A DNA stretch of 64,000 bases from Vibrio mimicus CAIM 602 (GTDB taxonomy: Bacteria; Pseudomonadota; Gammaproteobacteria; Enterobacterales; Vibrionaceae), in NCBI RefSeq assembly GCF_000338875.1, contig NZ_AOMO01000044.1, positions 186,001 through 250,000 on the forward strand, given 5' to 3'. The notes beneath the pieces are model-generated. The model saw only the letters and a list, made by a program, of their open reading frames with translations, was not told the origin of the DNA and did not search any database. Shown one piece after another: positions 1 through 36,008 of this stretch. Numbering within the stretch: position 1 is the stretch's first letter; each line of letters starts with the position of its first letter. Position numbers and translations under genes: made by a program.

Positions 1-56
1 TTGCTACCAAAGCGTTTGCAGATGTTTTTGAGTACAACAAAGTTTTGTTTTTCCAC
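1..56 (-). CDS. afuC: ABC transporter ATP-binding subunit, N-terminus only (AfuC/FbpC-like)
   Basis: Only the first 18 codons lie in the window. They read as a GTG start followed by EKQNFVVLKNICKRFG, the typical first strand of an ABC ATPase (LKNxxKRFG) upstream of the Walker A loop. A ribosome binding site (TTAGGAGA) overlaps the stop of the permease gene, which ends 11 bases upstream, so this is the last gene of the binding protein-permease-ATPase operon. The remainder lies beyond the left edge. The subunit would energise uptake by the permease. Afu versus Fbp naming depends on the linked genes. Confidence 0.75.
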   Translation of the reverse strand, partial: MEKQNFVVLKNICKRFGS

Positions 57-67
57 GGTGATGTCTC

Positions 68-2163
68 CTAAGAATCTTGATTGGTGGCTTTGGAACGAGA
101 AACGCGAGCTTCACCGACCAGTAAATCGAACAACAAAATGATGGCTAACATCACGACAATCAGCACGGAACCGTAGGCGATAGCGATGCCGTACTCGCCA
201 TCTTCTACTCGGTTCAGAATGTAGGACGTTGCAACGCGGGTTTCTGGAGTAACCAGAAAGATGATCGCACTGACCGTGGTCATCGCCCGCACAAAGCTGT
301 ACACCAGCGTGGAGAGAATCGCGGGGCGTAACAGTGGCAAAATAATGTAGCGAATGGTTTGTAATGAGCTGGCACGTAAGCTGAGTGAAGCTTCATCCAG
401 AGATTTATCGAGCTGTCCGAGTCCTGCAATACCTGAGCGGATCCCCACGGGCACATTACGCATCACCATCGAGATCACCACAATTGCGGCGGTGCCGGTT
501 AAATAAATCGGCGCATCGTTAAACGCCAAGATGTAGGAAACGCCTGCCACTGTACCGGGTACAGCGAAGCAGAGCATGGTGGAAAACTCGATCACTTTTT
601 TGCCGTAGAACTGCTGTCTCACCACCACATAAGCAATCAATAAGCCGAACAGGGCAGTAATCGGAGCCGCCACACCCGCATAAATCATGGTGGTGATCAG
701 TGAAGGCCAAGCGCCATCAGACATGCCATTCCCAAACAGATTGAGGTAGTTTTTGAAGGTCAGGGTGTAATCGACGCCCCAGTTCACCGTAAAGCTGCCG
801 AAGAAGATGCTGCCGTAGAGCAGAACGTTAAAGATCATCCACGCATACAAAGTTACAGTGACGCCCAATTTCAGAGAGGCTGGCATCTCTTGCACATCGC
901 CGCGGTAAGCTTTACCAGAAATGGTGACGTAGGAGCGCTGGCCAATCCACAGATACTGCACCACAAAAATGGCGAGTGAGAACAGTAGCAGAACCGAGCC
1001 GAGCGTACTGGCTGAAGCGTAATCCAGTTGCGCCCCTGCAATATAGAAATAGATTTGCGTCGCGAGCACATCAAAGCTGCCGCCTAGTACCAAGGGGTTA
1101 CTGAAGTCTGCCAATGATTGCACGAATATGATCAAAAATGAGTTGGCTAACGCAGGTTTAAGCAGCGGCATGATAATGCCAAAGAAGGTTTGATAACGGT
1201 TGGCTTTGAGGGTGTAGGAAGCCTCTTCCAACGAAGGATGCAGTGACTTGAGTGCGCCATCCAAAATCATGAATGACATAGGCGCAAACGCCAGCACCTG
1301 TGCGAGCCAAATGCCCGTGAAGCCATACAACCAGTTGGTTTTCTGTAAACCAAACCCATCGACCATCAACTCAGTGATATAACCCGAACGACCCAACATT
1401 AAAGTCACGCCTAACCCGACAATAAAGGGCGGTGTCACGATCGGTAAAATAGAAAACACGCGCGCGATAAAGGCGGAGCGTTTGGCAATACGTGTGGTGT
1501 AAATGGCAAAAATCAGCCCGAAGAAGGTTGCGCCAACGCCTACCGCAATGCCGAGTGCAATCGAGTTGTAAATGACGGTGAGCGTATGAGACTGGGACAG
1601 GATCGTCATGAACTGCCATGCCGTCCAGTTGCCCATGTCATCTTTAAACATCGGCAGGAAAATGGCGATGCTCGGATAAACAATAAAAATCACAATCAGC
1701 AGAATGATGCTGATCAGCGAGCCAATGACAAAGTGGTCGCCACCGAGGTATTCCAAGCGGGCGAAGGCGAGCGTCATAATAGCGCCAAGGGCAGTGAACA
1801 GAATGATGCTGGAATAACCCAACCCTTTACCGCTTAGCCATGCACTGAGCAAAATGGCCAACATGCAGAAGCCAGAATACGCAATATCGACATAGTGGCG
1901 AGTTGTGTGCTGACGCCCCTGAGCTTGCCGAGGCCGAAAGACAAGCAATAAAGGCAAACTAAACCAGAACCAGGAAATGTTTGGCTCACTCCAACCCATA
2001 GCGGCGTAGAATTCATCTGGAGTGGATTCAAACAGCCATAATCCAGAGCAAACGATGGCAGAAGAATAAAGCTAAACAGCACCGCAGCCAGCCAGTAAAA
2101 AACCGGATCGGTTTTGACTGGCTGGTGGAGTGTCAGTTTCAGCGCTTGAGAAGGCTCATGCAT
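68..2163 (-). pseudogene. afuB: ABC transporter permease, two-domain, interrupted by a frameshift (AfuB-like)
   Basis: Inner-membrane permease of the binding-protein-dependent importer, about 698 residues if intact, with two fused permease modules as in FbpB/AfuB. The true start is the ATG at 2163 (MHEPSQALKLTLHQPVK), preceded by AAGG. The reading frame runs through a first membrane segment to ALDYG and then breaks at the CC pair 2036-2037. One extra base there (GGG instead of GG on the coding strand) would continue as LFESTPDEFYAAMGWSEPN into the long frame ending at 68. Downstream, the EAA-type loops of both permease halves are visible (EASYTLKANR and EASLSLRASS). An internal ATG at 1999 could give a 643-residue product lacking the first segment. 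The break is either a sequencing error or a real loss. Confidence 0.8.
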
Positions 2164-2235
2164 GGTAAGACCTTAATATTGAGTCGCACTTAACCTGCCC
2201 GCAAGCAGTGAGCAGGCTAAGTGTCAGGGGAGAAA

Positions 2236-2256
2236 TACCGCCACCGAGTGGCGGTA
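2236..2256. promoter_or_regulatory. Intercistronic hairpin between afuA and afuB
   Basis: A perfect inverted repeat TACCGCCAC-CGA-GTGGCGGTA (nine-base-pair stem, three-base loop) lies between the stop of the binding-protein gene and the start of the permease gene. It has no long T tract. This suggests partial termination or 3'-end protection that lets the binding protein outnumber the membrane subunits, as is common in such operons. That role is inferred. Confidence 0.6.
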
Positions 2257-2272
2257 CGACTACGATTTCGGG

Positions 2273-3307
2273 TTAGTTACCCATTTTGATCTCGTTAACC
2301 CACTTGGTGATCAAACGCTTACGCTCATCAGAAGAGCCGTAGGTTTCCATATCGTAGTTGATCAGTTTGAGTGCTTTCGGGTCAAGCGCATTGGGTGATT
2401 GTTCCGCTTGAGTATTAGTCAAGATTTGGTAGGACTCACCTTGTTTCCATGCCACTTCTTGGCCTTCTTTCGACAATACCCAGTCAACGAACAGTTTGGC
2501 GTTATCAAGGTTACGTGCACCTTTGATAATGCTGACTCCACCGATTTCGTACCCAGTACCTTCACAAGGAGAGATGAGTTCGAGTGGCGCACCTTTGGCT
2601 TGCTCCAGCGAGTAGTCGTGCAGGAATCCAATACCAATCGCCACTTCACCACGTGCAGAGTTGCGTGACGGTGTCACTCCAGACTTGGTGTACTGAGAAA
2701 CGTTCTTGTCGAGCTTTTTGAAGTACTCAAATGCGGTGGGTTCATCCCACAACTGAATGAAGGTTGCGAGAGCTGTATAAGCCGTGCCAGAGCTTTGTGG
2801 GTCGGAGATTTGAATTTCGCCTTTGTATTCCGGCTTGGTCAAATCCGCCCAGCAACGAGGAATAGGAATACCTTTCTGTGCCAAGCGTTCGGTGTTCACA
2901 CCAAAGCCCAAAATGCCCATGTAAACCGCAGAAGAGTAGTTACCTTTGCGTTTGGCTGGATCACGGAACGCTTCCATGATGTTGGCCAGTTCTGGGGATT
3001 GGTAAGCTTGGAGTAAGTCCATTTCACCCGCTTGTGATTGTGGGTCAAGCGTGCCGCCGTACCAAACATCTGCGCGTGGGTTGTTTTTCTCTGCATCAAT
3101 TTTTGCGAGTGTACTGCCTGAACCGTTGCGTACAAAGGAGGTGTTCACATTGTATTTTTCAGCGAACGCTTTGGTACCTGCTTCACACATAGCATTGGTT
3201 GCACTGCAGTAAACCACTAAACGGCCTTCAGCATGAACCAGTGGTGCTGTCATCATCGAACCAAGAACACTGAGTGCCAGCAGCGTGCGTTTTGCATTAA
3301 CAATCAT
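2273..3307 (-). CDS. afuA: Periplasmic substrate-binding protein of ABC importer, probable sugar-phosphate binder (AfuA/FbpA family)
   Basis: 344 residues. A signal peptide ends at about residue 26 (APLVHA|EGRLVVYC) and a class 2 binding-protein fold follows (GRLVVYCSATNAMCEAG at the start, WVLSKEGQE near the end). The family is usually annotated as Fe(III)-binding. The tandem tyrosines that ligate iron in FbpA are not evident in the corresponding region, which reads IGIGFLHDYSLEQ. Established knowledge: AfuA of Actinobacillus pleuropneumoniae binds hexose and heptose phosphates, and afu genes are linked to uhp genes in several enteric pathogens. Here the gene follows uhpC on the same strand after 112 bases, so glucose-6-phosphate-type uptake is the better guess. 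Iron is not excluded. Confidence 0.85.
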   Translation of the reverse strand: MIVNAKRTLLALSVLGSMMTAPLVHAEGRLVVYCSATNAMCEAGTKAFAEKYNVNTSFVRNGSGSTLAKIDAEKNNPRADVWYGGTLDPQSQAGEMDLLQAYQSPELANIMEAFRDPAKRKGNYSSAVYMGILGFGVNTERLAQKGIPIPRCWADLTKPEYKGEIQISDPQSSGTAYTALATFIQLWDEPTAFEYFKKLDKNVSQYTKSGVTPSRNSARGEVAIGIGFLHDYSLEQAKGAPLELISPCEGTGYEIGGVSIIKGARNLDNAKLFVDWVLSKEGQEVAWKQGESYQILTNTQAEQSPNALDPKALKLINYDMETYGSSDERKRLITKWVNEIKMGN

Positions 3308-3419
3308 TGGGTTTTCCCTCTTGTTGATGCTCCCTTGTGTCCTTGTCAGATCTGTACTGCGTCAGGTCATAAAGTGGAGCACAGTTACGATATTGGATGG
3401 TAAAGATTGGTTATGTTTA

Positions 3420-4730
3420 TCACTCATCTTCCGTCACCGGTTGCTGAGCTTTTATAAAGGGCAGCAGTTGTAAACTGATCACGGCTGCTGCCGCAGTAAT
3501 TAGGCAGAAGAAGCCTTCCCAGCCCCATGCTTCAATAGCCAGTGACATGGGGTAGCTGGCTAAAGCTGCACCGAGATAGCTAAATAGCCCAACAAATCCG
3601 GTCGCGGTGCCTGCCAAATCTTTCCTTGCGCATTCTGCGGCTGCCATACCAATCATCATTTGCGGGCCGAATACAAAAAATCCGATACAGAAGAAGCAGC
3701 CAGCCAAAAACCATAAATGATCGATAGGTGTTAGCCATAAGGCCGCAACGGAGGCAAAAATGCCTAACGCAAAAATCAAATTCATCGGGGCGCGGTTGCC
3801 GCGAAAGTAGTAGTCGGAACCCCAGCCACCAAGCAACGAGCCCAAAAATCCGCCGACTTCAAACATGGCTACAGCGCTATTGGCACTGAGAATGTTGTAC
3901 GCATGCCGCTCAATCAGATAGAGCGATCCCCAGTCGTTAATGCCAATTCTGACCACGTACACCAGCAAGTAAGCTCCACACAACAGCCAAATGTAGCGAT
4001 TAGTTAGTACGTAGCGATAAACCGCAACGCGGAAGGCGAGTCCTTGGCCTTCTTTTTCGTGTTCCAGTTCAAGTGCATCACCGCGCCATTCACCGACAGA
4101 AGGCAGCCCCATTTCGGTCGGTTTCTCTTGAATGCGATAACAGAGCCAAAGCCCAACAAAAATCGCAATCCCGCCTGCAAACAAGAATCCGTAACGCCAG
4201 CCAAAGGTTAAGCTGATAAAACCAATCACGATGGGGATCAATGCGCCACTTAAGTTGTGGCAAGTATTCCAAATTGACCACCAAAAGCCCCGTTCGCTAC
4301 GCGAATACCAGTGTGTGAGCACCTTGGCACAGGCTGGCCAGCCCCAGCCTTGAAAAAAGGCATTCGCCGTCCATAACAAAGTAAAAGCCAACAAGGACGA
4401 ACTTAAACCAAAAACCATGTTGATGATGCCCGTGGCTATCAACCCCAATCCCATGAAATAGGGAGAGCGGGAGCGGTCAATCATCAAACCCGAAACAAAT
4501 TTTGACACTCCGTAAGTGAGGTAGAACAGCGTACCGAAAAAGCCTAAATCTGAGTAATCGAGCCCTAACTCACTGAGCATTTGCGGCATCGCAAAATTGA
4601 AGCTTTTACGTGTGAGATAGAACACGCCATAACCCACATACATGGAAATCATCAAATGAATGCGCCAGTGGCGGTAAGCCTGATCGATTTCCATCGTTCC
4701 TACGGGTTGTACCTTGGGTACAATCTTCAT
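3420..4730 (-). CDS. uhpC: UhpC-like sugar-phosphate sensor/transporter homologue
   Basis: 436-residue MFS protein of the organophosphate:phosphate antiporter family, with about twelve hydrophobic segments and family motifs such as GWGWPACAKVL and FGPQMMIGMAAAECARKDLAGTATGF in part. Its length fits UhpC (about 440) better than UhpT (about 463). It lies directly behind the UhpB kinase gene. In E. coli, UhpC binds external glucose-6-phosphate and activates UhpB. No uhpT follows; the ABC importer genes do. It could still carry some transport activity. Ends 112 bases before afuA. Confidence 0.85.
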   Translation of the reverse strand: MKIVPKVQPVGTMEIDQAYRHWRIHLMISMYVGYGVFYLTRKSFNFAMPQMLSELGLDYSDLGFFGTLFYLTYGVSKFVSGLMIDRSRSPYFMGLGLIATGIINMVFGLSSSLLAFTLLWTANAFFQGWGWPACAKVLTHWYSRSERGFWWSIWNTCHNLSGALIPIVIGFISLTFGWRYGFLFAGGIAIFVGLWLCYRIQEKPTEMGLPSVGEWRGDALELEHEKEGQGLAFRVAVYRYVLTNRYIWLLCGAYLLVYVVRIGINDWGSLYLIERHAYNILSANSAVAMFEVGGFLGSLLGGWGSDYYFRGNRAPMNLIFALGIFASVAALWLTPIDHLWFLAGCFFCIGFFVFGPQMMIGMAAAECARKDLAGTATGFVGLFSYLGAALASYPMSLAIEAWGWEGFFCLITAAAAVISLQLLPFIKAQQPVTEDE

Positions 4731-4821
4731 ACTGCATGTCCTTATTGAGTTTTATCCTAATCAAGCAAGGTCGGAAAAACATGGGAAGGAGTTGTATTCA
4801 TCTAGGAAATTTTCCTAGTTT

Positions 4822-6381
4822 TTAGGCATTTGTTAACGGTTTTGTGGGTAAGTTAACAATTATTCGCGTGCCAGTTTGGAAACTGGGCGACGTCATCATT
4901 AATTGGCCGCCCAGCGCCGAGACTCGCTCACTCAGCCCCTTTAAGCCTTGTCCGCGCACACGCCAGTCAGGAGGTAAACCAATGCCATCATCTTTGACTT
5001 CCAAAACCATTTCACTACCCGGAAACAGGCTAATGTGTACGTGGCTCGCCTTGGCATGCTTGGAGATATTGTTCAGCAATTCCTGCACAATCCGATACAG
5101 AGTTACTCGTGTGGTATCGTCCAGCTTTTGGGGATTCACCCCCATATTGAGGCGAACCGTAATGCCTTGTTCGGCAAACCGCATTTCTTGCACGAGCTGA
5201 CGAATCGCATGTTCTAAACCGAGTTCATCCAGAATGTGCGGGCGCAACTGCTTTAAAAGTTGTCGAGTGGATTGATGAATACGCATGGCGAGCGACTGAA
5301 CGCTGGAAGCCGCTTGTTTGGCTTGATCATTACTGGCTAAACGTTCAGCGAGCATGGATTGAATTTGAATCGCGGTAATATTTTGACCGATCTCATCATG
5401 CAGTTCACGGGCCACCGATTTACGGATTTGTTCTTCCACTGAGACGAGCTGGCGCGCGAGATCTTGCTTCTCACGTAACTCTTTGGCTAAACGGGTGTTC
5501 ATTTTGTGCAGCAATAAAGAAAGCTGGTGCTGGCGGCTAATGGCGATGCCCAGCCCAAGCCCCACAAACGCTTGGCTCGACATAAAAATCAGCAGCTCTT
5601 GATCCGAAGAGAATGAACCACTGAACTGGCGTGCAGTAGCAAGCAGAATGCAGTTTAAGCTGCTCGCTAACACGCCACCTTGCCAACCATAGCGATAGGC
5701 AAGAAAAATCGTCGGTAGCAAGATGATCAATAGGGCAAAGGGTTTCATCTGTTCAAGCAACGTCAGCTCAGCCAGCAGCCCTAAGCTGAAAAACACTAAG
5801 CTCCACACCAGCATTTTCGGCTTAAGTTTCACATCGTGGTGAATCAGTTGCGGAGAGAGGGGATTCCACGTTTGGTGACGAAGATAGTCGGCCACCAGAT
5901 ACAAAAATGGCGTCAGCACAATGCCTCCCGTGAGCGAAGCGATGCTCACGGCAATTAACGTATCCGCCCCCATTTGTAGCGGTTTCGCCAACAAGGTAAA
6001 AGTCAGGCCAACCAAAATGGTGTGCAGCAGCACCAGTGCAACGATCAGCAGCAGCTTTTGCCAATACAGGTTCAATTTCTGCCAATGCTGGCGGGCAATA
6101 GCCGCAGCCAGCCAAACCACCCAAGGCATGAGCAGCATCAAAGGGCTGGACTGTTCTGGGAGCAACACCAAGATCGCGCCAGCCAAGAGCATGTCACTGA
6201 GTAACCAAACCCAAGTATGAGTTGGGCGCGCTAATAAATAGACCGCCAAGCGTAAGCCGGTGGGAAAAAGCAGATAGGCTTGTAGTGGATTGTGGCTCAA
6301 ATATTGGCTGATGTTCCACAGGCTAAATTGACTAATACTGTAGAGAACAAAAGCAAAAATCAGTGGAAACAGCTTCGCCAT
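4822..6381 (-). CDS. uhpB: UhpB-like membrane histidine kinase
   Basis: 519 residues. The first 285 or so residues form a polytopic MASE1-like membrane region. A helical linker (about 290-320) and a HisKA_3 domain follow, with the phosphoacceptor at about His328 in VARELHDEIGQN. The HATPase domain has an N box (ELLNNISKHAKA), a G1 box (VKDDGIGLP) and a G2 box (GQGLKGLSERV). Established role: responds to UhpC and phosphorylates UhpA. Starts two bases after the uhpA stop, so the two genes are translationally coupled. Confidence 0.92.
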   Translation of the reverse strand: MAKLFPLIFAFVLYSISQFSLWNISQYLSHNPLQAYLLFPTGLRLAVYLLARPTHTWVWLLSDMLLAGAILVLLPEQSSPLMLLMPWVVWLAAAIARQHWQKLNLYWQKLLLIVALVLLHTILVGLTFTLLAKPLQMGADTLIAVSIASLTGGIVLTPFLYLVADYLRHQTWNPLSPQLIHHDVKLKPKMLVWSLVFFSLGLLAELTLLEQMKPFALLIILLPTIFLAYRYGWQGGVLASSLNCILLATARQFSGSFSSDQELLIFMSSQAFVGLGLGIAISRQHQLSLLLHKMNTRLAKELREKQDLARQLVSVEEQIRKSVARELHDEIGQNITAIQIQSMLAERLASNDQAKQAASSVQSLAMRIHQSTRQLLKQLRPHILDELGLEHAIRQLVQEMRFAEQGITVRLNMGVNPQKLDDTTRVTLYRIVQELLNNISKHAKASHVHISLFPGSEMVLEVKDDGIGLPPDWRVRGQGLKGLSERVSALGGQLMMTSPSFQTGTRIIVNLPTKPLTNA

Positions 6382-6383
6382 AG

Positions 6384-7010
6384 TTAACCTTCCACGAGCA
6401 GATGGTGCTGCAGAGCAAAGCGGATCAAATCAACGTTATTGGTTAGGTTTAACTTGCTAAGAATGTTGGCTCGATGAACGTGAACGGTTTTGTGGCTAAG
6501 AAACAGCGCTTGCGCTATGTCTTTAACATCTTGGCCTTGCACTAACAAATCAAACACTTCCACTTCACGCTTGGTGAGATCCACGAGCACATTATTGATA
6601 TCGGGATTACTCAAGTTGACCAAAGCATCGGCGCACAAATAACGTCTGCCAGAGGCAACGGTACGAATGGCACTCACTAGCTCACTTGGGCCGCAACGTT
6701 TTGAAAGGTAACCTTGTGCCCCAGCGTCTAAGGCTTTTTTCACAAATGAAGCCGAATCATAAATGCTGAGGATGATCGCTTTGAAATTGGGATTATGCTG
6801 ACGCAACCGCTCTAGCAGGCTCAGCCCATTTTCATCCGGCATCGAAATATCAATGATGGCCACATCGACTGGAGAGTGGGTTAGGGCATGAAAGGCCTCT
6901 TTTGCACTCTCGTATTCACCGTGCACGGCCATGTCTTGTTCAAGATTGAGTAACTGAGCGAAGCCCGAACGAACAATGGTATGGTCATCAATAAGTGCAA
7001 TCGTAATCAT
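6384..7010 (-). CDS. uhpA: UhpA-like NarL/FixJ response regulator
   Basis: 208 residues. The receiver domain has acidic pocket residues Asp8 and Asp9, phosphoacceptor Asp54 (IIDISMPDENG) and Lys104. A LuxR-type helix-turn-helix lies near residues 145-200 (LTKREVEVFDLLVQGQDVKDIA, then SHKTVHVHRANILSKL). It is the first gene of uhpABC and is expected to activate transcription of the sugar-phosphate uptake genes. The promoter lies in the 300-base gap shared with the divergent HD-GYP gene. Confidence 0.92.
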   Translation of the reverse strand: MITIALIDDHTIVRSGFAQLLNLEQDMAVHGEYESAKEAFHALTHSPVDVAIIDISMPDENGLSLLERLRQHNPNFKAIILSIYDSASFVKKALDAGAQGYLSKRCGPSELVSAIRTVASGRRYLCADALVNLSNPDINNVLVDLTKREVEVFDLLVQGQDVKDIAQALFLSHKTVHVHRANILSKLNLTNNVDLIRFALQHHLLVEG

Positions 7011-7310
7011 GGTGGCAGTCGCTGAGTAAATTAAAATTCACAAAAGTGTAATGTTTTTGCTGAGCGATGGCTGAGACTTACCGCACGAAGAGTTATTTGT
7101 TGATAGAGAAAACAACACCTCTTTGCCTTTCATTTTTCTCTCTCACACATAAGTATGAAGTTCATTTTGTATTGTCTGTTACATCAACGTGTTTGGTGTA
7201 TCACGGTAGATAAAAGTGGCTAAAACTTTTGTTTAGCAAATGGGGTAACGGTCTACTACATTTTTATTGAGGTTGTTGAAATCAACCAAATGGTTAGAAA
7301 TGAGTGGCAT

Positions 7311-8591
7311 ATGATGAAATCTGTAAAAATCGAATGGCAAGTGAATTTAAGGCAAGCATTTTTCTGCATAGCGAGAGCGTTAGATTCGATCGGGATTGAC
7401 GATATCAATCATGGTCATAGAGTTGGATACATGGCGTATTCCTGTGCCAAAGCGATGGAGTGGAATGAAGAGGAGTGCCAGTTAGTTTTCTCCCTTGGGC
7501 TTATCCATGATTGTGGTGTTGCCCAAAAGCGTGATTTCTACCATTTGCTCGAAAACATGCAGCCCGAAAACGTTCAACAACACTGCCTACGTGGTTATGA
7601 ACTTCTCTCTCATTGTCCACCACTGGCACTTTTTGCCACTCCCATTTTGTACCACCATACCCCGTGGCAAGAGCTGAAAAATATTCCGCTTGCGGACAGA
7701 GATAAACGATTTGCTGCCCTGATCTTTCTGGCTGACCGGGTTGATTACCTTAAAGAGCTCTATTCAAGAGATGAATACGGCAACGTGACTCAGGAAGCAC
7801 GTAACCAAGTCTGTTTAGAAATTGGCCGATTAAGTGGAAGCTTGTTTGAACGCGATTTGGTTCGTGAAATGCAGAACTTACTGAGTAAAGAGTTCATCTG
7901 GTTTTCCATGGAAGCTCACCATATTGAAGCACTGGGTCATAACTTGCCGCCCACACCATTCTTTGAGCAAAAACTGAGTGTGGATGATGTGATGTCAATG
8001 GCGATGCTGATGGCCAATGTAGTTGACGCGAAAAGCCAATTCACTTTTTACCATTCGCAAAAAGTGGCGGAGATTTGCCAACGCTTAGCCAAAGAATTGG
8101 GATTAGATGCTGAAATGCAAAAAGCGCTCTATCTCACGGGCTTAGTGCACGATATTGGTAAGCTGCACACGCCAGAAAAGATTTTGCATAAACCCGATAA
8201 ATTGAATGAGAGCGAGTATCTCTGCGTTCAGCGCCACTCCACGGATTCGAGATACACGCTACAAATGGTATTCGGTAAGTCGATATTGGGTGAATGGGCA
8301 GGGAATCACCATGAGCGGTTAGATGGTTCTGGCTATCCCCGAGGATTGCAAGGTTCGGAAATTGATTTGCCATCACGCATCATTGCTGTTGCCGATGTTT
8401 TTCAGGCGTTAACTCAAGCCCGGCCTTATCGCGGCAGAATGTCCTTGCCTGAGGTGATGAACATCATGACGCATGAAGTTAGTTGCGGGCGACTAGATAG
8501 CAGGGTGTTTGAACTGATCGCAAGAAATGCTGAAGAGTATTATGAGCTCTCAATTGAGAAGAGTGCGAATACTTGGGTGGCTGAGAATTGA
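7311..8591 (+). CDS. HD-GYP domain phosphodiesterase, V-cGAP1-like (3',3'-cGAMP hydrolase)
   Basis: About 426 residues from the ATGATG at 7311; an upstream in-frame ATG at 7290 would add seven. The N-terminal half is a degenerate HD domain (GLIHDCGVAQ, then YHHTPW). The C-terminal half is a canonical HD-GYP domain with GLVHDIGKLHTPEKIL, GNHHERLDGSGYPRGL and ADVFQALTQARPYRGR. This tandem layout, position beside uhpA and sequence match my recollection of VCA0681 of V. cholerae, reported as V-cGAP1. That enzyme linearises 3',3'-cGAMP, the second messenger made by DncV, and has a further 5'-nucleotidase step. A broader cyclic dinucleotide activity is the alternative. A strong bidirectional terminator follows. 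Confidence 0.88.
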   Translation: MMKSVKIEWQVNLRQAFFCIARALDSIGIDDINHGHRVGYMAYSCAKAMEWNEEECQLVFSLGLIHDCGVAQKRDFYHLLENMQPENVQQHCLRGYELLSHCPPLALFATPILYHHTPWQELKNIPLADRDKRFAALIFLADRVDYLKELYSRDEYGNVTQEARNQVCLEIGRLSGSLFERDLVREMQNLLSKEFIWFSMEAHHIEALGHNLPPTPFFEQKLSVDDVMSMAMLMANVVDAKSQFTFYHSQKVAEICQRLAKELGLDAEMQKALYLTGLVHDIGKLHTPEKILHKPDKLNESEYLCVQRHSTDSRYTLQMVFGKSILGEWAGNHHERLDGSGYPRGLQGSEIDLPSRIIAVADVFQALTQARPYRGRMSLPEVMNIMTHEVSCGRLDSRVFELIARNAEEYYELSIEKSANTWVAEN

Positions 8592-8670
8592 TGATTTAGG
8601 TGGTAGCCACCTTCTAAGTGAGCCTTTGATATGGAAGATTAGTTAGAAGGGAAGGGACTTAACGTCAATG

Positions 8671-8705
8671 AATAAATCCGGTGCAAAGCACCGGATTTAT
8701 TTTTC
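8671..8705. terminator. Bidirectional rho-independent terminator
   Basis: Hairpin AAATCCGGTGC-AAA-GCACCGGATTT flanked by A-rich and T-rich tracts. It lies between the convergent ends of the HD-GYP gene and the nap operon and can serve both. Confidence 0.85.
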
Positions 8706-8717
8706 TCTTTGTCTTTT

Positions 8718-8846
8718 CTACTTGTCTTTGGTCATGGCCAGTAAGCCAATCGAGACGACGGCAACACCAAGGAAACCGGCCAGAATGATTACCGGCATTG
8801 CGCTGTAGCCCAGCACGTGCCAAAAAATCGATTCAAGAGTACTCAT
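8718..8846 (-). CDS. Small single-pass membrane protein at the end of the nap operon (TIGR02808-like)
   Basis: 42 residues: MSTLESIFWHVLGYSAMPVI at the start, then a hydrophobic segment of about 20 residues (IILAGFLGVAVVSIGLLAM) and a charged tail TKDK. A clear ribosome binding site (AAGGAG) overlaps the stop of napC, and the gene starts 12 bases after it, so it is the last cistron of napFDABC. Small membrane proteins of this length are found at this position in other vibrios (family TIGR02808, from memory). Function is unknown; NapE-like stabilisation of NapC in the membrane is a guess. Confidence 0.8.
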   Translation of the reverse strand: MSTLESIFWHVLGYSAMPVIILAGFLGVAVVSIGLLAMTKDK

Positions 8847-8857
8847 AGTGGCTCTCC

Positions 8858-9433
8858 TTATTGCCAGCCTTCAACACCATGCATGTCGGGTAGGTTATGC
8901 GCGATACCTTTATGGCAGTCAACACAGGTTTTCTCGCCAGAAGCCAGTGCCGTAGAGTGCTGTTGTACCGCACGGCTACTTTGCTCTGAAAAATCCATAT
9001 AGTTGAACTGGTGACAGTTTCGACATTCCAACGAATCGTTCTTTTTCAACCGATCCCACTCACGTTCCGCTAAGTGTGCGCGGCGTGCTTGGAACTTCTC
9101 TGGAGTATCGATAGTACCGATAAAGTGTGCCACCAATTCTTTGGAAGCTTGCACTTTACGCACAATTTTATCCGTCCATTCGTGAGGTACATGGCAGTCT
9201 GAACAGATGGCGCGAACCCCAGAACGGTTTGAATAGTGAATCGTCTCTTGGATTTCGGCCACAATCGGCGCGTGACAGCCTGAGCAAAACTCTTCGCTGT
9301 TTGTCGCTTCCATTCCGGTGTTGAAGGCGCCCCAAAATAGCAGGCCGCCCACAAAGCCCATCAGCAAAACCACACCAACGGCGGCTTTACTTGGACGAGA
9401 CAAACGAAGCCAAAACGCTTTCAGAAATTTCAT
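8858..9433 (-). CDS. napC: NapC, membrane-anchored tetraheme c-type cytochrome
   Basis: 191 residues. One N-terminal membrane anchor ([21 protein letters not shown]) is followed by a periplasmic domain with four CxxCH haem sites: CSGCH, CSDCH, CRNCH and CVDCH. NapC/NirT family. It passes electrons from menaquinol to the NapAB nitrate reductase. It lies 17 bases after napB in the operon. Confidence 0.96.
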
Positions 9434-9450
9434 AAATGGCCTCTTCTCGG

Positions 9451-9906
9451 TTAACGAAGTGAATCAACGCGTTCGAAATCGTTCTCGACAAGCGGTTTTG
9501 CATCCGCTTGAGGTACGTGACACTGCAAACAGAAGTAGCGGCGTGGAGAAACATCCGAAAGTACCGCATCTTCACGGTTCACAAAGTGAGTCACACTGAT
9601 CTTGGTTGCACCCATTTCTTTTGCGTTTTTCCAACTGTGGCAAGCAAGGCACTTGTTGGCGTTCAACGACACTTCATAGTTGCGAATGTTGTGCGGGATC
9701 AGTGGCGGTTGGTACACGAAGTCACTTTCCAGCGCTTGTTCACGTGGGTATTTTTTCATTGGGTCAGCGGCGCGAGTCGCTTCAATTTCAGTTGCTCCGC
9801 GCAGTGATTCTAGGCCACCGATACCGCCTGGGTTGTCTAACTCAGCATGAGCGACACCGACCAGCACAGTAAACACTGAAAGTAAGGCAATGAGTTGTTT
9901 TTTCAT
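9451..9906 (-). CDS. napB: NapB, periplasmic diheme cytochrome subunit of nitrate reductase
   Basis: 151 residues from the ATG at 9906, chosen because GGCGGAG precedes it and because a Sec signal peptide begins there ([25 protein letters not shown], cleaved at about residue 21). Two haem-binding motifs, CLACH and CLQCH. Partner of NapA in the periplasm, taking electrons from NapC. Confidence 0.95.
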
Positions 9907-9972
9907 CGTAAATTCTCCGCCTTGCGGCTTAATACTTAGTCTGGGCTGACGGGCAGCCCAGTTCAATCAGGG

Positions 9973-12462
9973 TTACGCGACTTTGGTGATCTTAACCGGA
10001 CACTTCTTGAAGTCAGTTTGCTTCGAGAGTGGGTCGGTCGCATCGAGGATCAACTTGTTGATCAGAATGCGAGCATCAAAGAAAGGCACGAACACCAAGC
10101 CTTTTGGCGGCTTATTACGACCGCGAGTTTCCACACGAACTCGAACTTCACCACGCGAGTTGGAGATCAGCACTTCATCGCCACGGCGTAAACCGCGTGC
10201 TTGCGCATCTTCATGGTGCATAAAGCACAGTGCATCTGGCACCGCTTTATACAGCTCAGGGACACGACGCGTCATGGTGCCGGTATGCCAGTGTTCCAGC
10301 ACACGACCTGTACAGAGCCACAAGTCATATTCAGCATTCGGTACTTCTGGTGGTGCTTCGTAAGGAGAGGAGATGATCCACGCTTTACCATCTGGTTTGC
10401 CGTAAAAGTCCCAACCTGAACCTGCTTTCGCATAAGGGTCAGAGCCTTCTTTAAAGCGCCACTTAGTCTCTTTACCATCGACAACTGGCCAACGCAGGCC
10501 GCGAACTTGGTGGTAAACATCGTAAGGCGCTAAATCGTGACCATGGCCGCGACCGAACTCGGCATACTCTTCAAACAGACCTTTCTGGATGTAGAAACCA
10601 AAGTGGTGTGCATCATCGTTGAGTTCACGAGCTTCGCTAACTGGGAACTTGTCCACCTGACCATTTTTGAACAACACGTCATACAGTGTTTTGCCACGGT
10701 ATTGCGGTGCTTTCGCCAGTAACTCTTCCGGCCACACTTCTTCGACTTTGAAGCGTTTTGAAAACTCAATGACTTGCCATGAATCTGAGTGAGATTCACC
10801 CACGGTCTTCACTTGTTGGTACCACACTTGGGTACGACGCTCAGCGTTACCGTAAGCACCTTCTTTTTCTACCCACATTGCGGTTGGCAGAACAAGGTCA
10901 GCCGCTTGCGCGGTTACGGTTGGGTAAGCATCAGACACTACGATGAAGTTTTCAGGGTTACGGTAGCCCGGTAGACGCTCAGTATTGATGTTTGGACCCG
11001 CTTGCATGTTGTTATTACATTGCACCCAGTAACAGTTCAGTACACCATCTTTGAGCATGCGGTCTTGCTGTACCGCGTGGAAGCCCGGTTTAGGTGGGAT
11101 AGTGCCTTCAGGCAGTTTCCACACTTTTTCTGCAATCGCACGATGTTTAGGGTTAGCAACCACCATGTCTGCTGGCAGACGGTGTGCAAAGGTACCTACT
11201 TCACGAGCAGTACCACACGCTGATGGTTGACCCGTCAGTGAGAATGGGCTGTTACCTGGGGTGGCGATTTTGCCAGTAAGCAGGTGCAGGTTGTACACCA
11301 AACTTTGCATCCATACACCGCGAGTATGCTGGTTCATACCCATGGTCCATAGCGACATCACTTTGGTGTTTGGATCAGCATACTGCTTCGCCAGTGTGAT
11401 CAGTTTATCCGGTGCCACACCTGAAATTTCAGAGGCTTTCTCAACCGTGTATGGCGCAACCGATTTTTTGTACTCTTCAAACGAAATATCGCTGACATCA
11501 CCAGAGTTGGGATTTTTCGCCTTTTTCTGCAGTGGGTCATCGTCACGCAGACCGTAACCGATATCCGTTACCGCTTGCTTGAAGTGGGTGTGTTTGTTCA
11601 CAAAGTCCCAGTTCACCGCATCGTTTTGAATGATGTAGTTGGCGATGAAGTTGGCAATCGCTAAGTCAGACTGTGGATGGAAAATGTAGCCGTGATCTGC
11701 CAATTCAAAAGAACGGTGGTAGTAAGTGGAGAGTACATTCACTTTAACGTGAGGATGACTTAGGCGACGGTCAGTGATGCGAGTCCAGAGTACTGGGTGC
11801 ATTTCCGCCATGTTTGAACCCCAAAGCACAAAAGCATCGGCGTGTTCAAAGTCGTCATAACAGCCCATAGGTTCATCGATACCGAAGGTACGCATGAAGC
11901 CCACTACCGCAGAAGCCATACAGTGGCGCGCGTTCGGGTCAATGTTGTTTGAACGGAAACCGGCTTTCATCAGTTTCACAGCGGCGTAACCTTCCATTAC
12001 TGTCCACTGACCAGAACCGAACATACCCACGCTGGTTGGGCCTTTGGCTTTAAGCGAGGCTTTCCATTTTTCAGCCATCACATCAAATGCGGTATCCCAA
12101 GAGACAGGGGTGAATTCACCGTCTTTGTGGTATTGACCATCTTTCATGCGCAGCAGAGGCGTTTTTAAGCGATCTTGGCCGTACATGATTTTTGAGAGGA
12201 AGTAGCCCTTAATACAGTTAAGGCCTTTGTTCACTGGTGCTTCAGGGTCACCTTGAGTTGCGACAACGCGACCATCTTGGGTACCGACCAGCACAGAGCA
12301 ACCTGTACCACAAAAACGACAAGGCGCTTTGTCCCAATGAATAGCGGTTTGATCGGAGCTAGCGATCAAGTTGGTGGCAGAAGCGGGGAGGGTGATCCCT
12401 GCAACCGCCGCAGCTGAGGCGGCTGCGTTTGCTTTCACAAACGCACGTCTGGTCATTTTCAT
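9973..12462 (-). CDS. napA: NapA, catalytic molybdenum subunit of periplasmic nitrate reductase
   Basis: 829 residues, normal for NapA. The Tat signal carries the twin-arginine motif (MTRRAFVKA) and ends near residue 30. The [4Fe-4S] site begins at Cys48 (CRFCGTGC) with the fourth cysteine in GLNCIKGY. The molybdenum-ligating cysteine lies in [13 protein letters not shown]. The C-terminal domain closes with molybdopterin-binding segments ([20 protein letters not shown]). Reduces nitrate to nitrite in the periplasm. The start at 12462 is preceded by GAGGG; a second in-frame ATG two codons later is possible. Confidence 0.97.
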
Positions 12463-12562
12463 ACATTACCCTCGAGTTCAGAAAAGGTATTTCCAGTGTG
12501 TAATATTTCCTTCCTACAGGATGCCGTCACGATATAGGCGACAGGCAATCTCAGCAGTTTGG

Positions 12563-12841
12563 CTATAGTTCTTCTTCCGTTGCAGTCTCTACCTGATGGA
12601 AAACCAAAAAAGCGTTAAGCACATTGGGAAGATTATTTATGTGTTCAATCGTTTCGGTGATGAAGCCTTGACGATCGGTTTCAATCACCACGACGAGTTT
12701 GCCTTGCGGATCTTCGCCGTAAATTTCCACGTCACGCAGTTCGCTCACTTGCTGTTTTACGGTGAGTAGATGCTCTGGCAAGGTGTGAACCACCAAGCTG
12801 GAGATGTGTACTTCATGCAGTGAAGCTAAAGGTTGTGACAT
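12563..12841 (-). CDS. napD: NapD, NapA-specific chaperone
   Basis: 92 residues from the ATG at 12841, selected because TTGGAGAG lies just upstream; a start seven codons earlier is less likely. Ferredoxin-like NapD fold with the opening HEVHISSLVVHTLPEHL. Established role: binds the Tat signal of NapA and delays export until the cofactor is inserted. It lies between napF (26 bases upstream) and napA. Confidence 0.93.
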   Translation of the reverse strand: MSQPLASLHEVHISSLVVHTLPEHLLTVKQQVSELRDVEIYGEDPQGKLVVVIETDRQGFITETIEHINNLPNVLNAFLVFHQVETATEEEL

Positions 12842-12867
12842 ATTGCTCTCCAATTTATCCACGCCGT

Positions 12868-13362
12868 CTAAGCGATGTTATGAGTATAGTGAACAGTCAT
12901 TGCATTGCTTGGACAAACTGAAACACAGGCACCGCAACCAGAACAGTTTTGCGAGTTCACTTGCGGGCTCGCGGTACGGCCAATTTGCAAAGCAAAATGG
13001 ATGGCCTCTTCTGGGCAAGCATCCTGACAAGACCGGCACTCAACTTGGTTATGTGCCAAGCACTGGCTGGCAATTTCAACTGACGCTTGCCAAGGCTCTT
13101 CACTTTGCGGCAGAAAAATCGGTTCCGGACAGCTCTGCGCGCACTGGTAACAAAACGTGCACTCATCAATCGAAAAGTTGACGGTGGGGAAACCACCATC
13201 ACCCTTTTCGATGATGTGGGTTTCACACGCTTCAACGCATTTTCCGCAACGTGTGCACTCATCAATAAATGCTTGTGGACGTGCAATCCAAGGCAGTCGA
13301 ACTTGGCTTTGGTTTTGCTGACGGCCAAGGGCAAACCAACGTCGTTTGGTTAAATCAACCAT
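12868..13362 (-). CDS. napF: NapF, ferredoxin-type iron-sulfur protein
   Basis: 164 residues. Four cysteine clusters are visible: CTRCGKCVEAC, CTFCYQCAQSC, CRSCQDACP and CSGCGACVSVC. First gene of the nap operon. NapF acts in the cytoplasm, probably in maturation of the NapA iron-sulfur/molybdenum centre. The upstream gap holds FNR-like and NarP-like boxes. Confidence 0.95.
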   Translation of the reverse strand: MVDLTKRRWFALGRQQNQSQVRLPWIARPQAFIDECTRCGKCVEACETHIIEKGDGGFPTVNFSIDECTFCYQCAQSCPEPIFLPQSEEPWQASVEIASQCLAHNQVECRSCQDACPEEAIHFALQIGRTASPQVNSQNCSGCGACVSVCPSNAMTVHYTHNIA

Positions 13363-13436
13363 ATTTTTCTCCGCGTCTGTTCACAACCTGCCACATTTCC
13401 ATACACAAATTGTAGTTTTTGACATATTTGTATAAA

Positions 13437-13452
13437 TACCTCTTAGGGGGTA
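13437..13452. promoter_or_regulatory. NarP/NarL 7-2-7 binding site upstream of napF
   Basis: TACCTCT-TA-GGGGGTA fits the inverted heptamer consensus TACYYMT-N2-AKRRGTA with one mismatch. It is about 80 bases from the napF start codon, where NarP activates nap in E. coli. The regulator gene itself lies nearby on the other strand. Confidence 0.7.
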
Positions 13453-13466
13453 ATTGGGGTGGTGGA

Positions 13467-13480
13467 TTGTTTTGGATCAA
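13467..13480. promoter_or_regulatory. FNR-like site between napF and narQ
   Basis: TTGTT-TTGG-ATCAA matches the FNR consensus TTGAT-N4-ATCAA with one mismatch in the left half. It lies upstream of the NarP-like box relative to napF, the same order as in E. coli napF, suggesting anaerobic activation. Confidence 0.6.
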
Positions 13481-13603
13481 TAAATTAACCTGCTCGTTTC
13501 GGATAGTGTAGCCCTAAAGAGGTGGAACCTTGGTTACCAATGAGAGAGAAACCGCGTTGTCTAGTCCGGTACGCAAGTCATTAACTCGCACGATGGCGAA
13601 AGC

Positions 13604-15280
13604 ATGTTGCTGATTTTATTTTTATCCGCGCTGACGACAGGGGTTGCGATTGTGACGCTGGCTTCTTCACTTAATGACGCGGAGGCAGTTAACGTTTCTG
13701 GCTCAATGCGTATGCAAAGCTATCGACTGGCGTATGACATTCAGGCTCAATCGAAAGATTACAAAGCGCACATTTATCTGTTCGAAAATTCGCTCTATTC
13801 ACCTTCCATGTTGGCGCTGCTGGATTGGACAGTGCCGGGTGACATCCAACACGATTACTACCAGTTGATCGAACGTTGGCATCAATTAAAAAAGGTGCTC
13901 AATAGCGACCAAAATGCTGATTATCTCCACGAAGTTGCGCCATTTGTCGGCTTAGTGGATAGTTTTGTGCTCAAGCTGCAGCGATTCTCTGAGCGTAAAT
14001 TAATTGCTCTGGCGGCGGTCGGCAGCTTCGGTTTGGGCGGCATTTTTGCCGTCTCGCTGTTTGTGGTTTATTACATCCGTGAGGAAGTGGTGCGGCCTTT
14101 AAATGCGATGGTGGCCGCCAGTGAGAAGATTAAAAACCGTATTTTTGAAGTCTCGCTGGATGAAACCAGCAGCACAGAAATGGGTATTTTGACCCGCACC
14201 TTTAACAGCATGGCGGGGGATCTTGGCAAGTTGTATCGCGGACTAGAACATGCGGTAAATGAGAAAACGCATAAGCTGCAAACAGCCAACCAATCATTGC
14301 AAGTTCTGTATAACTCTTCGCAAGAATTGACGGCGTCTCGGATCACGGCGAGTAACTTTCAAACCATATTACGTCATTGGGTTGCGGTAGAAGGGATCAA
14401 CGCCCTGCGTTTAGAAATTGAAGAAGAAGCAGGAAAATCGCTGATTTTACAAGAAGGCAATCCGAGCGGTGAGACTATGCTACAAACCCCGTTGACGCTT
14501 GATGGTCGCCATCTTGGCTATCTCTACTGGGATGCCACTACGCCGGGGCCAGATCGCGCTTTGATTGATAACTTTGCGATGATTTTATCGCGTGCCATTT
14601 ACTACAATCAGTCGCAGCGCCAAGCCGAACAACTGCTTTTAATGGAGGAGCGGGCAACCATAGCGCGCGAGTTGCATGATTCGTTGGCGCAGTCGCTCTC
14701 TTATTTGAAAATTCAATTAACCCTGCTGAAACGCTCAGTTATTCCGTTAAAACCTTGTGGTGATTTGAGTAAGACGGAAAACATCATCAGTGAGATCGAT
14801 AAAGGTTTATCGGATGCTTACACTCAGTTGCGTGAGCTGCTGACCACATTTCGCCTCACGTTGAGTGAGGGCAGTTTTGGCCAGTCATTACTGGGAATGT
14901 TGACTCAACTCTCAAGTCAAACTGAAGCTAAAATTGAGCTCAATAACGCACTTTCATCGATTGTGCTTGATGCTCATCAACAAGTGCATTTGGTGCAGTT
15001 GATTCGTGAGGCAACGATCAACGCGATCAAGCATGCTCAGGCTACTAAGATAATGGTCAATTGCCTTGAGCAGCAGGGAACCGTTAGAGTAACGATTGAA
15101 GATGACGGGGTCGGTTTCGACCCACAAGATCACAAGCTCAACCATTATGGTATGAGCATTATGCAAGAACGTGCCGCCCGCTTGCGCGGCGAATTAAAGG
15201 TTGAATCCGCACCGGGTAAAGGCTGCAAAGTTGTGCTCACTTACCAACAGGGCGAGGAGAAAAATAAGAATGAGTTGTAG
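13604..15280 (+). CDS. narQ: NarQ, nitrate/nitrite sensor histidine kinase (leader out of frame)
   Basis: 558 residues from the ATG at 13604. Two membrane segments flank a periplasmic domain carrying the nitrate-binding P box (SLNDAEAVNVSGSMRMQSYR). HAMP, a signalling helix, a GAF-like linker, a HisKA_3 H box (ATIARELHDSLAQSLSYLK) and an HATPase domain (GVGFDP, then YGMSIMQERAARLRG) follow. The cytoplasmic leader seen in other NarQ proteins is present upstream in another frame: from a TTG at 13530, after AGAGGTGG, the sequence reads VTNERETALSSPVRKSLTRT and then MAKA. One missing base near 13602-13603 separates it from the main frame, so the full protein should be about 583 residues. Overlaps narP by 11 bases. 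Confidence 0.9.
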   Translation: MLLILFLSALTTGVAIVTLASSLNDAEAVNVSGSMRMQSYRLAYDIQAQSKDYKAHIYLFENSLYSPSMLALLDWTVPGDIQHDYYQLIERWHQLKKVLNSDQNADYLHEVAPFVGLVDSFVLKLQRFSERKLIALAAVGSFGLGGIFAVSLFVVYYIREEVVRPLNAMVAASEKIKNRIFEVSLDETSSTEMGILTRTFNSMAGDLGKLYRGLEHAVNEKTHKLQTANQSLQVLYNSSQELTASRITASNFQTILRHWVAVEGINALRLEIEEEAGKSLILQEGNPSGETMLQTPLTLDGRHLGYLYWDATTPGPDRALIDNFAMILSRAIYYNQSQRQAEQLLLMEERATIARELHDSLAQSLSYLKIQLTLLKRSVIPLKPCGDLSKTENIISEIDKGLSDAYTQLRELLTTFRLTLSEGSFGQSLLGMLTQLSSQTEAKIELNNALSSIVLDAHQQVHLVQLIREATINAIKHAQATKIMVNCLEQQGTVRVTIEDDGVGFDPQDHKLNHYGMSIMQERAARLRGELKVESAPGKGCKVVLTYQQGEEKNKNEL

Positions 15281-35017: not shown

Positions 35018-36008
35018 CGCTGCTAACCCCATAATTCGCTTGGTTTTTGCTCCGACTTTACTGCTATTTTATTTAACAGTTCAGGGAGCTTTTATGCCAG
35101 TGCTTGCTCCGATGTTTGTGGTGATTTTTCTTACGATCATGTCATCAAGGCCACCTTTGTCCATGATGCTAAAATTGCTGGTCGTCTTGCTGTTGGTCGG
35201 TGTTGGTATTATCGCTGTCGGTGAAGTACTAATTGATTCACCGACAGGTTTTGGATTGTTTTGTTGGGTTGCCCTGTTTTGGAGCTTTTATCGAAGCCAT
35301 AAAGATCCCAAAGATATTTTTGCTACTTTTTTGTTACTGTTTGTGGTTATCACAAGTGTGATCAATCTACAGTTTGGGGTATCCATCTCGAGTCTCCCTT
35401 TGGTGTTGTTGGAGACTTTTGTTACAGCTTTGGCCGTTACCTACATCAGTTTCTTGTTGTTTCCTGGAGATGAGAAAGATATTTTGCCGGATGAGCAAGA
35501 TATGCAAGGGGCAGAACTTCATTTTGGGTTGATCGCATTCAAAACCACGATTTTATTTGTAAGCTTGATGGCGCTTATTGGGACGGGCAGTTCACAAACA
35601 CTCCTTATTGTAATCACGATCGGCAGTATGATTAAAATTCCTATCTCTCGAGATCAGCGAATTTTCCGAAATAATCGGTTAATTTCTACAACGGTCGGTA
35701 TTTTGAGCACCATACCTATCATGTTGGTTCACACTGGCGGGTTCCCGATGTGGGCAACGTTGGGCATTACCTGCTTTTTGGGGCTTCAATTGGCGTGTTA
35801 TGCGATTCGTAAGCAGTGTCGGCGGAGTATTTATCAACTACTGTTTATCAATTTTATTGTTTTGGTTAGCCAAATTATCTCATATCTAGGTAGTGAAGCT
35901 TTGATGGCTGAGCTAACACGATTAGCTTCGATTTTGGTGGCAATAATTATTGCGACGGTGATCCTCAATCTTGTTCCTATCAGTCCAGTGGTTACGAAAT
36001 CTTCCTAG
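35007..36008 (+). CDS. DUF2955/FUSC-like exporter membrane subunit
   Basis: 333 residues with about ten hydrophobic segments in two blocks and a central acidic loop (PGDEKDILPDEQDMQGAE). Resembles DUF2955, a half-size relative of the AaeB/FUSC efflux family. Works with the overlapping adaptor gene. The substrate is unknown. Followed by a strong terminator. Confidence 0.82.
   Translation: MFHSAANPIIRLVFAPTLLLFYLTVQGAFMPVLAPMFVVIFLTIMSSRPPLSMMLKLLVVLLLVGVGIIAVGEVLIDSPTGFGLFCWVALFWSFYRSHKDPKDIFATFLLLFVVITSVINLQFGVSISSLPLVLLETFVTALAVTYISFLLFPGDEKDILPDEQDMQGAELHFGLIAFKTTILFVSLMALIGTGSSQTLLIVITIGSMIKIPISRDQRIFRNNRLISTTVGILSTIPIMLVHTGGFPMWATLGITCFLGLQLACYAIRKQCRRSIYQLLFINFIVLVSQIISYLGSEALMAELTRLASILVAIIIATVILNLVPISPVVTKSS

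What the first reader, a model, noticed from the sequence alone, without database searches (positions are those of the whole stretch)
1..7010. uhpABC linked to an Afu-type importer and no uhpT
The transporter genes following uhpC are a binding protein, double permease and ATPase usually labelled as iron uptake. The iron-ligating tandem tyrosines are not evident in the binding protein. AfuABC of Actinobacillus is a known sugar-phosphate importer, so UhpA may control ABC-type import of glucose-6-phosphate or related sugars here.
Basis: partly seen in the sequence, partly recalled or inferred. Interest (0 to 1): 0.5.

Follow-up and report, generated by a model that had tools for sequence, protein, structure and literature searches.

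The report
Vibrio UhpA-controlled sugar-phosphate ABC importer
The genes annotated as an iron importer next to a sugar-phosphate sensor are almost certainly a sugar-phosphate importer of a kind already described in a close relative; what is new is where its control switch probably sits, and that the same sensor set is called a fucose sensor in pathogenic E. coli.

Summary
uhpA, uhpB, uhpC, afuA and afuB lie on the minus strand at 68-7010; only the first 56 bases of afuC are in the window. No protein in the genome reaches the UhpT cut-off. AfuA keeps all five glucose-6-phosphate contacts of Actinobacillus AfuA, has no tandem tyrosines, and is about 98% identical to PDB 8x1a ('periplasmic G6P binding protein VcA0625'). 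The same arrangement in V. cholerae is published (Moisi 2013; abstract recalled, paper not held), so the hypothesis is right but not new.

Three additions. (1) The likely UhpA operator is not in 3308-3419 but at 4802-4818, before uhpC: a perfect palindrome, the only site with at most 1 mismatch in the genome, with the uhpT-promoter layout. UhpA should therefore drive uhpC-afuABC. (2) UhpA, UhpB and UhpC each split into an Afu-linked and a UhpT-linked branch; the E. coli O157 genes at the 'fucose-sensing' FusKR/Z0461 position fall in the Afu-linked one. (3) Vibrionaceae carry a position-conserved, sequence-divergent hairpin between uhpC and afuA.

As assembled, afuB has a frame break near its start; this strain's importer may be inactive, or the assembly wrong.

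The parts
6384..7010 (-). uhpA, NarL-type response regulator, 208 aa; recognition helix SHKTVHVHRAN as in E. coli UhpA (SPKTVHVHRAN)
4822..6381 (-). uhpB, MASE1 histidine kinase, 519 aa
4843..4858 (-). CRP-like sequence (2 mismatches to TGTGAN6TCACA) at the position of the CRP site of uhpT promoters; lies inside the uhpB coding region, so its conservation may be due to the protein
   Evidence: inference
4802..4818 (-). predicted UhpA operator CTAGGAAAATTTCCTAG, perfect palindrome in the uhpB-uhpC gap
4754..4759 (-). predicted -10 box (TAGGAT) 42 bases after the operator
   Evidence: spacing conserved
3420..4730 (-). uhpC, membrane sensor of the OPA carrier type, 436 aa; keeps R46, R149 and R266 of E. 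coli UhpC
3327..3382 (-). intercistronic hairpin between uhpC and afuA, arms 3376-3382 and 3327-3334
2273..3307 (-). afuA, periplasmic binding protein, 344 aa, with G6P contacts S63, T175, H230, D231, E254
68..2163 (-). afuB, double permease; two overlapping frames (68-1999 and the N-terminal part of 1834-2163), broken as assembled
1..56 (-). start of afuC, ATPase, 352 aa; the rest lies outside the window (L009 12998-14056)

Best explanation
The locus is an ATP-driven importer of hexose (and probably heptose) phosphates under control of its own UhpABC sensor set. Periplasmic glucose-6-phosphate is sensed by UhpC, which switches on the kinase UhpB; phosphorylated UhpA binds the palindrome at 4802-4818 and fires a promoter in front of uhpC, making one transcript uhpC-afuA-afuB-afuC. 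AfuA captures the sugar phosphate, AfuB and AfuC pump it in. UhpC is thus inside the operon it helps to induce, while uhpAB stay outside it; a hairpin between uhpC and afuA may set the high afuA to low uhpC ratio. Shown here: the genes, the conserved binding residues, the operator and its spacing, the absence of a UhpT-grade protein, the separate Afu-linked regulator branch. Inferred: ligand, phosphorelay, the direction and extent of transcription, the role of the hairpin. In this assembly afuB is frame-broken, so in this very strain import may not work.
For: AfuA contact residues conserved; near-identical solved protein titled periplasmic G6P binding protein VcA0625; AfuABC of A. pleuropneumoniae carries G6P and F6P into an E. 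coli uhpT mutant (PMC4546632, passages and sections). uhpABC stands beside afuABC in 76 of 80 fetched loci, UhpT in none of the 80 stretches of at most about 21 kb. Operator: 0 mismatches, the only site with at most 1 mismatch in the 4.32 Mb genome; in 18 of 18 named Vibrionaceae loci the site with at most 2 mismatches is in the uhpB-uhpC gap, and in 20 of 20 unnamed Vibrio loci a site is present, 17 before uhpC, 2 between uhpC and afuA, 1 between uhpB and afuA where uhpC was not found (the two sets overlap in genomes). The -10 sits 42 bases on in 24 of 28 distinct Vibrionaceae sequences and 42-43 on in 51 of 55 others, against 43 in 9 of 14 uhpT promoters. E. coli UhpA binds a strong upstream and a weak downstream site with CRP upstream (PMC4790336, passages).
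Against: No ligand, footprint or transcript was measured. afuB is frame-broken as assembled. AfuC passes the NCBIfam model named ferric ABC transporter ATP-binding protein (657.5 bits, cut-off 496), and AfuA passes no curated NCBIfam cut-off (best PhnS2, 219.5 against 392.75). The fold alone does not decide: FbpA (1mrp) also matches the model at Z 19.2 against 21.9 for AfuA and 8x1a, and the model is poor (mean pLDDT 58.1). VCA0686 and VCA0687 are listed with values 1.82 and 1.76 in a table of an iron-uptake regulator study in V. cholerae (PMC7600106, passages). The enteric operator is weaker (at most 2 mismatches in 12 of 62 loci; 4 mismatches in 36 of 55 distinct sequences).
Confidence: 0.85

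Rival explanations
1. A ferric iron importer (FbpABC type) that merely lies beside uhpABC.
For: Annotation habit; AfuC passes the 'ferric' NCBIfam model; FbpA shares the fold.
Against: No tandem tyrosines; FbpA chains match AfuA at about 22-26 bits against 530.6 and 719.7 for AfuA and 8x1a; all G6P contacts kept; linkage with uhpABC in 76 of 80 loci.
Confidence: 0.03
2. An importer of another phosphorylated compound, such as pyridoxal-5-phosphate (as P5PA, PDB 6wce) or 2-aminoethylphosphonate.
For: P5PA is the third-best solved relative (372.2 bits); PhnS2 is AfuA's best NCBIfam model, below cut-off.
Against: AfuA and 8x1a are far closer (530.6 and 719.7 bits) and the sugar-binding H, D and E are kept. 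The P5PA pocket was not compared residue by residue.
Confidence: 0.05
3. UhpA acts at a promoter directly in front of afuA (3308-3419), and afuABC is transcribed on its own.
For: The gap is 112 bases, long enough; two Vibrio leaders (L157, L202) do carry a perfect operator before afuA; by recall Moisi 2013 speaks of a VCA0685-0687 operon.
Against: The window's best match in the 150 bases before afuA has 8 mismatches; the perfect operator with promoter spacing lies before uhpC.
Confidence: 0.12
4. The Afu-linked UhpABC set senses fucose, as reported for FusKR of E. coli O157, and not a sugar phosphate.
For: The O157 set at this position is described as FusKR/Z0461 (PMC6199705 passages; PMC4546632 section 12) and falls in the same branch.
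Against: UhpC and its O157 counterpart keep the arginines R46 and R266, which by recall bind the phosphate in this carrier family; by recall V. cholerae VCA0682 responds to hexose-6-phosphates; the operon next door binds sugar phosphates.
Confidence: 0.12

Closest known systems
V. cholerae hexose-6-phosphate ABC importer VCA0685-0687 with VCA0682-0684 (Moisi 2013)
   Same: By recall, same genes, same order and UhpA homologue as activator; 8x1a, titled as VcA0625, is about 98% identical to this AfuA.
   Different: Another species; afuB frame-broken in this assembly. The operator position was derived here and could not be compared, as the paper is not held. The PDB title's gene number differs from the recalled VCA0685.
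AfuABC of Actinobacillus pleuropneumoniae (PDB 4r72-4r75; PMC4546632)
   Same: Binding protein with the five contact residues, double permease, ATPase.
   Different: The three Pasteurellaceae (Gallibacterium) loci in my set, L075, L083 and L085, show no uhpABC; the A. pleuropneumoniae locus itself was not examined.
UhpABCT of E. coli K-12
   Same: UhpA, UhpB, UhpC homologues (52.0, 38.5 and 57.4% identical), same recognition helix, same promoter layout.
   Different: Importer is an ABC system, not the UhpT antiporter; the UhpA promoter precedes uhpC instead of uhpT; the regulators form a separate branch.
FusKR/Z0461-AfuABC of E. coli O157 (OI-20)
   Same: Same gene order; its UhpA-, UhpB- and UhpC-like proteins group with the window's.
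   Different: Reported as a fucose-sensing system.

Membership tests
AfuABC sugar-phosphate importer | AfuA residues equivalent to H205, D206, E229 (and S37, T150) | tested here: met
AfuABC sugar-phosphate importer | One double permease and one ATPase gene after afuA | tested here: met
   the permease frame is broken as assembled
AfuABC sugar-phosphate importer | Binding and transport of G6P, F6P, S7P | not testable with these tools
   PDB title of a near-identical protein only
AfuABC sugar-phosphate importer | Intact permease frame | tested here: not met
   two overlapping frames; single frame in 24 of 26 genus genomes with AfuB. Lowers the claim that this strain's copy works, not the family assignment
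FbpABC ferric importer | Tandem iron-binding tyrosines in the binding protein (recalled) | tested here: not met
   no YY in AfuA
UhpABC sensor set | NCBIfam cut-offs for UhpB and UhpC | tested here: met
UhpABC sensor set | NCBIfam equivalog cut-off for UhpA | tested here: not met
   212 against 258 bits; the Afu-linked UhpA is a separate branch
UhpABC sensor set | UhpA operator and promoter layout | tested here: met
UhpT antiporter | A protein over the UhpT cut-off in the genome | tested here: not met
   best 292.9 of 497, a GlpT

The most novel reading that the evidence does not exclude
The Afu-linked UhpABC set is one ancient regulator branch, distinct from the UhpT-linked one, that drives uhpC-afuABC from a promoter placed in front of its own sensor gene, with a structured RNA leader before afuA in Vibrionaceae; and FusKR/Z0461 of enterohaemorrhagic E. 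coli is the same system, a hexose-phosphate sensor whose effects of fucose are indirect.
Probability: 0.5. Interest if true: 0.65.

Novelty: already known. Interest (0 to 1): 0.4.

Why it matters
The iron label on these genes misleads annotation in many enteric and marine bacteria. The shared branch of FusKR and the Vibrio sugar-phosphate regulators sets two published accounts of one orthologous sensor (fucose; hexose-6-phosphate) against each other and makes the question testable. The placement of the UhpA promoter before uhpC gives a concrete prediction (4754-4818) and would make the sensor part of its own inducible operon, unlike in E. coli K-12.

Tried and rejected
Iron import: rejected on residues and similarity. 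UhpA site before afuA: first looked for by eye as CCTGA/CCAGG motifs, which gave no common pattern; the uhpT-type palindrome then turned up before uhpC. Hairpin as RNA or DNA: a count of G-U against A-C mismatches in stems found without bias towards either gave 11 G-U and 20 A-C in 37 distinct stems, which does not favour RNA; z-scores favour the sense strand (mean -2.68 against -1.76; lower in 31 of 42), but raw energy is lower on the sense strand in only 19 of 42. So RNA is likelier but not shown. Rfam: no RNA family in that gap in 7 loci at gathering thresholds (one tRNA elsewhere) nor in window 1-9000 up to E 1. AfuA structure prediction: poor (mean pLDDT 58.1); used only to read the titles of solved relatives. 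Literature: 8 searches; no listed paper described the promoter before uhpC, the hairpin or the joint branch with FusKR, but I read only passages or sections of nine papers, and Moisi 2013 is not held, so these may be in print.

Rows dropped: tree rows with stops or too short were left out before counting, and identical ones merged (uhpA 108 to 101, uhpB 104 to 99, uhpC 106 to 100); L144 was taken out of the UhpC tree because its hit is UhpT itself (branch length 10; with it the label needs 2 changes, without it 1). The FusKR trees used a chosen part of the rows: 34, 33 and 33. The control of hairpin z-scores used 28 chosen of 38 Vibrionaceae loci.
Full report
WHAT IS THERE. The window is G000:C44:186001-250000 of a 4.32 Mb genome. 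Over 7.1 and 3.3 kb this locus is 92.1 and 90.1% identical in DNA to Vibrio metoecus OP3H, and G089 (2 contigs; probably V. cholerae, not verified) has an AfuA 99% identical (for AfuB 99%, for AfuA 99%). So the host is a member of the cholerae-metoecus group of Vibrio; I did not name the species. On the minus strand run uhpA, uhpB, uhpC, afuA, afuB and the start of afuC.

THE IMPORTER. AfuA's best solved relatives are 8x1a (719.7 bits), A. pleuropneumoniae AfuA 4r72 (530.6) and P5PA 6wce (372.2); FbpA chains score about 22-26 bits. By my count of the printed alignment 8x1a differs at 5 of 320 positions. Its title is 'Crystal structure of periplasmic G6P binding protein VcA0625'. Sit et al. (PMC4546632; I saw sections 6, 8, 9, 12 and passages) showed that AfuA binds G6P, F6P and S7P at nanomolar affinity, that H205A, D206A and E229A abolish binding, and that AfuABC lets an E. 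coli uhpT mutant grow on G6P or F6P. The equivalents here are H230, D231, E254, with T175 and S63. AfuABC in V. cholerae is named in that paper. Moisi et al. 2013 appears there and in three other papers as a reference; a review says that loss of hexose-6-phosphate uptake in V. cholerae lowers fitness on leaving the host (PMC4723616, passage). From memory, its abstract reports that VCA0685-0687 is an ABC system for hexose-6-phosphates controlled by VCA0682. I could not read it.

NO UHPT. No UhpT over the cut-off in this genome. In 148 genomes of the genus, AfuB is in 26 and UhpT over the cut-off in 44; 10 have both (G003, G023, G037, G042, G049, G060, G073, G079, G093, G118), so 16 of 26 AfuB genomes lack UhpT. 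In the family, 46 of 329 genomes have AfuA.

TWO REGULATOR BRANCHES. In 8 of the 10 genomes with both importers, a complete uhpABC stands beside each importer (G073 shows only repeated uhpC pieces beside afuA in the fetched stretch, and in G049 no uhpABC was found beside uhpT and no uhpC beside afuA). Trees separate Afu-linked from UhpT-linked proteins with one change of label: UhpA 89 and 12 rows, SH-aLRT 100; UhpB 87 and 12, 100; UhpC 87 and 12, 91 after taking out L144. These are quick trees, with warnings about long branches (K-12 and L143 among them). The O157 Sakai genes ECs_0416-0418, in the order uhpA, uhpB, uhpC, afuA, afuB, afuC, fall in the Afu-linked branch in all three (support 100, 100, 94). 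Identity O157 to window and O157 to K-12: UhpA 60.6 and 51.3, UhpB 43.9 and 37.3, UhpC 50.9 and 51.9%, so UhpC alone does not show it by identity. That these genes are FusR, FusK and Z0461 rests on position: OI-20 holds afuABC and the fucose-sensing system, and Z0461, Z0462 fusK and Z0463 fusR are so named in PMC6199705 (passages); the Sakai record does not use the names. Sit et al. noted the proximity of AfuABC and FusKR. The arginines at UhpT 46 and 275 and UhpC 46, 149 and 266 are kept in all 11 aligned proteins, O157 included. Of 5,426 complete E. coli genomes, 954 hold DNA like this locus and 499 hold at least 80% of it in one place.

THE SWITCH. The operator was derived from uhpT promoters: 14 upstream regions (13 Vibrio, 1 K-12) share CTAGGAAWTTTTCCTAG with 0-6 mismatches (K-12: 3). 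In the window it occurs without mismatch at 4802-4818; with up to 3 mismatches one other place matches (35992-36008), against 0.17 expected. In the genome no other site has at most 1 mismatch; one has 2; the reversed control pattern had 5 matches at up to 2 mismatches. Seven other genomes: 6 have one site each with at most 1 mismatch, all at a uhpC-afu or uhpT promoter; the seventh, G134, has neither AfuB nor UhpT over cut-off and no site. The site lies in the uhpB-uhpC gap in 18 of 18 named Vibrionaceae loci; among 20 further Vibrio stretches all have a site, 17 there, 2 between uhpC and afuA (L157, L160), 1 between uhpB and afuA (L161); of 62 other loci (mostly Enterobacterales; 4 have no uhpABC) 12 have it there with at most 2 mismatches and 1 elsewhere. 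With the best site taken in each gap, the -10 box falls at a fixed distance (42 in 24 of 28 Vibrionaceae; 42-43 in 51 of 55 others; 43 in 9 of 14 uhpT promoters), and CTCAT follows the operator in 17 of 28, 51 of 55 and 6 of 14. In E. coli UhpA binds a strong upstream and a weak downstream site, with one CRP site upstream (PMC4790336 and PMC5352689, passages). The CRP-like sequence at 4843-4858 has the right place but encodes the end of UhpB, so its conservation proves little. The recognition helix of UhpA is shared by window, K-12 and O157. Reading: one operator type serves both branches; in Afu loci it has moved in front of uhpC, so uhpC-afuABC is the inducible unit. In genomes with both sets cross-talk is to be expected.

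THE LEADER HAIRPIN. In the 66 bases ending 14 before afuA, 42 distinct Vibrionaceae leaders have a mean folding z of -2.44 (26 of 42 below -2; window -2.93). The same position before other genes of the same loci gives about 0: uhpA 0.09, uhpB 0.01, uhpC 0.20, afuB 0.41, afuC -0.27 (25-28 distinct each), against -2.51 for afuA (26 distinct); in the other 62 loci afuA gives only -0.65 (58 distinct) and uhpT leaders -0.67 (14). Stems differ widely in sequence between groups of species while keeping their place. Relatedness makes these counts less independent than they look. Since the operator lies before uhpC, the hairpin would be inside the uhpC-afuABC transcript, where it could raise afuA expression over uhpC by protecting or processing the RNA. 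Sense-strand folding is favoured by z but not by raw energy or by the mismatch count, so a DNA role is not excluded.

THE BROKEN PERMEASE. afuB is split over two frames near its start. Other members of the group show damage too: OP3H (G058, L010) has breaks in uhpB, afuB and the HD-GYP gene, which suggests sequencing error there, and G055 has lost the stretch from the middle of uhpC to the last part of afuA (L147). Whether this group is losing the importer or the assemblies are faulty cannot be told here.

VERDICT.

Noticed in passing
window 7290-8591: A gene for a protein with an HD-GYP-type domain (Pfam HD_5, HD) stands divergently beside uhpA; by position (recalled) the counterpart of V. 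cholerae VCA0681/V-cGAP1. Among the loci scanned only those of the metoecus-cholerae group (L010, L146, L148) showed it; its protein is 83-86% identical there, yet its DNA did not align to OP3H by blastn.
   Followed up: partly
window 68-2163: afuB reading frame broken near its start as assembled; one frame in 24 of 26 genus genomes with AfuB.
   Followed up: partly
L147 (G055:C2:309000-322000), 3946-4815: Deletion that joins the first 244 residues' worth of uhpC to the last part of afuA (from residue 280).
   Followed up: no
L157 (G073:C1:1095000-1108000), 5415-11999: Pieces of uhpC repeated four times at about 2,038-base spacing beside afuABC; duplication or assembly artefact.
   Followed up: no
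window 8858-15280: Beyond the HD-GYP gene lies what looks like a periplasmic nitrate reductase cluster (nap-like) and a NarQ-like sensor; names by eye, not scanned.
   Followed up: no
L063, L073, L074, L078, L079: In these Yersinia loci a second UhpA-like regulator gene (34% identical) follows afuC.
   Followed up: no
L139 (G060:C3), 3069: A second operator-like site (2 mismatches) downstream of uhpC in a UhpT-linked locus.
   Followed up: no
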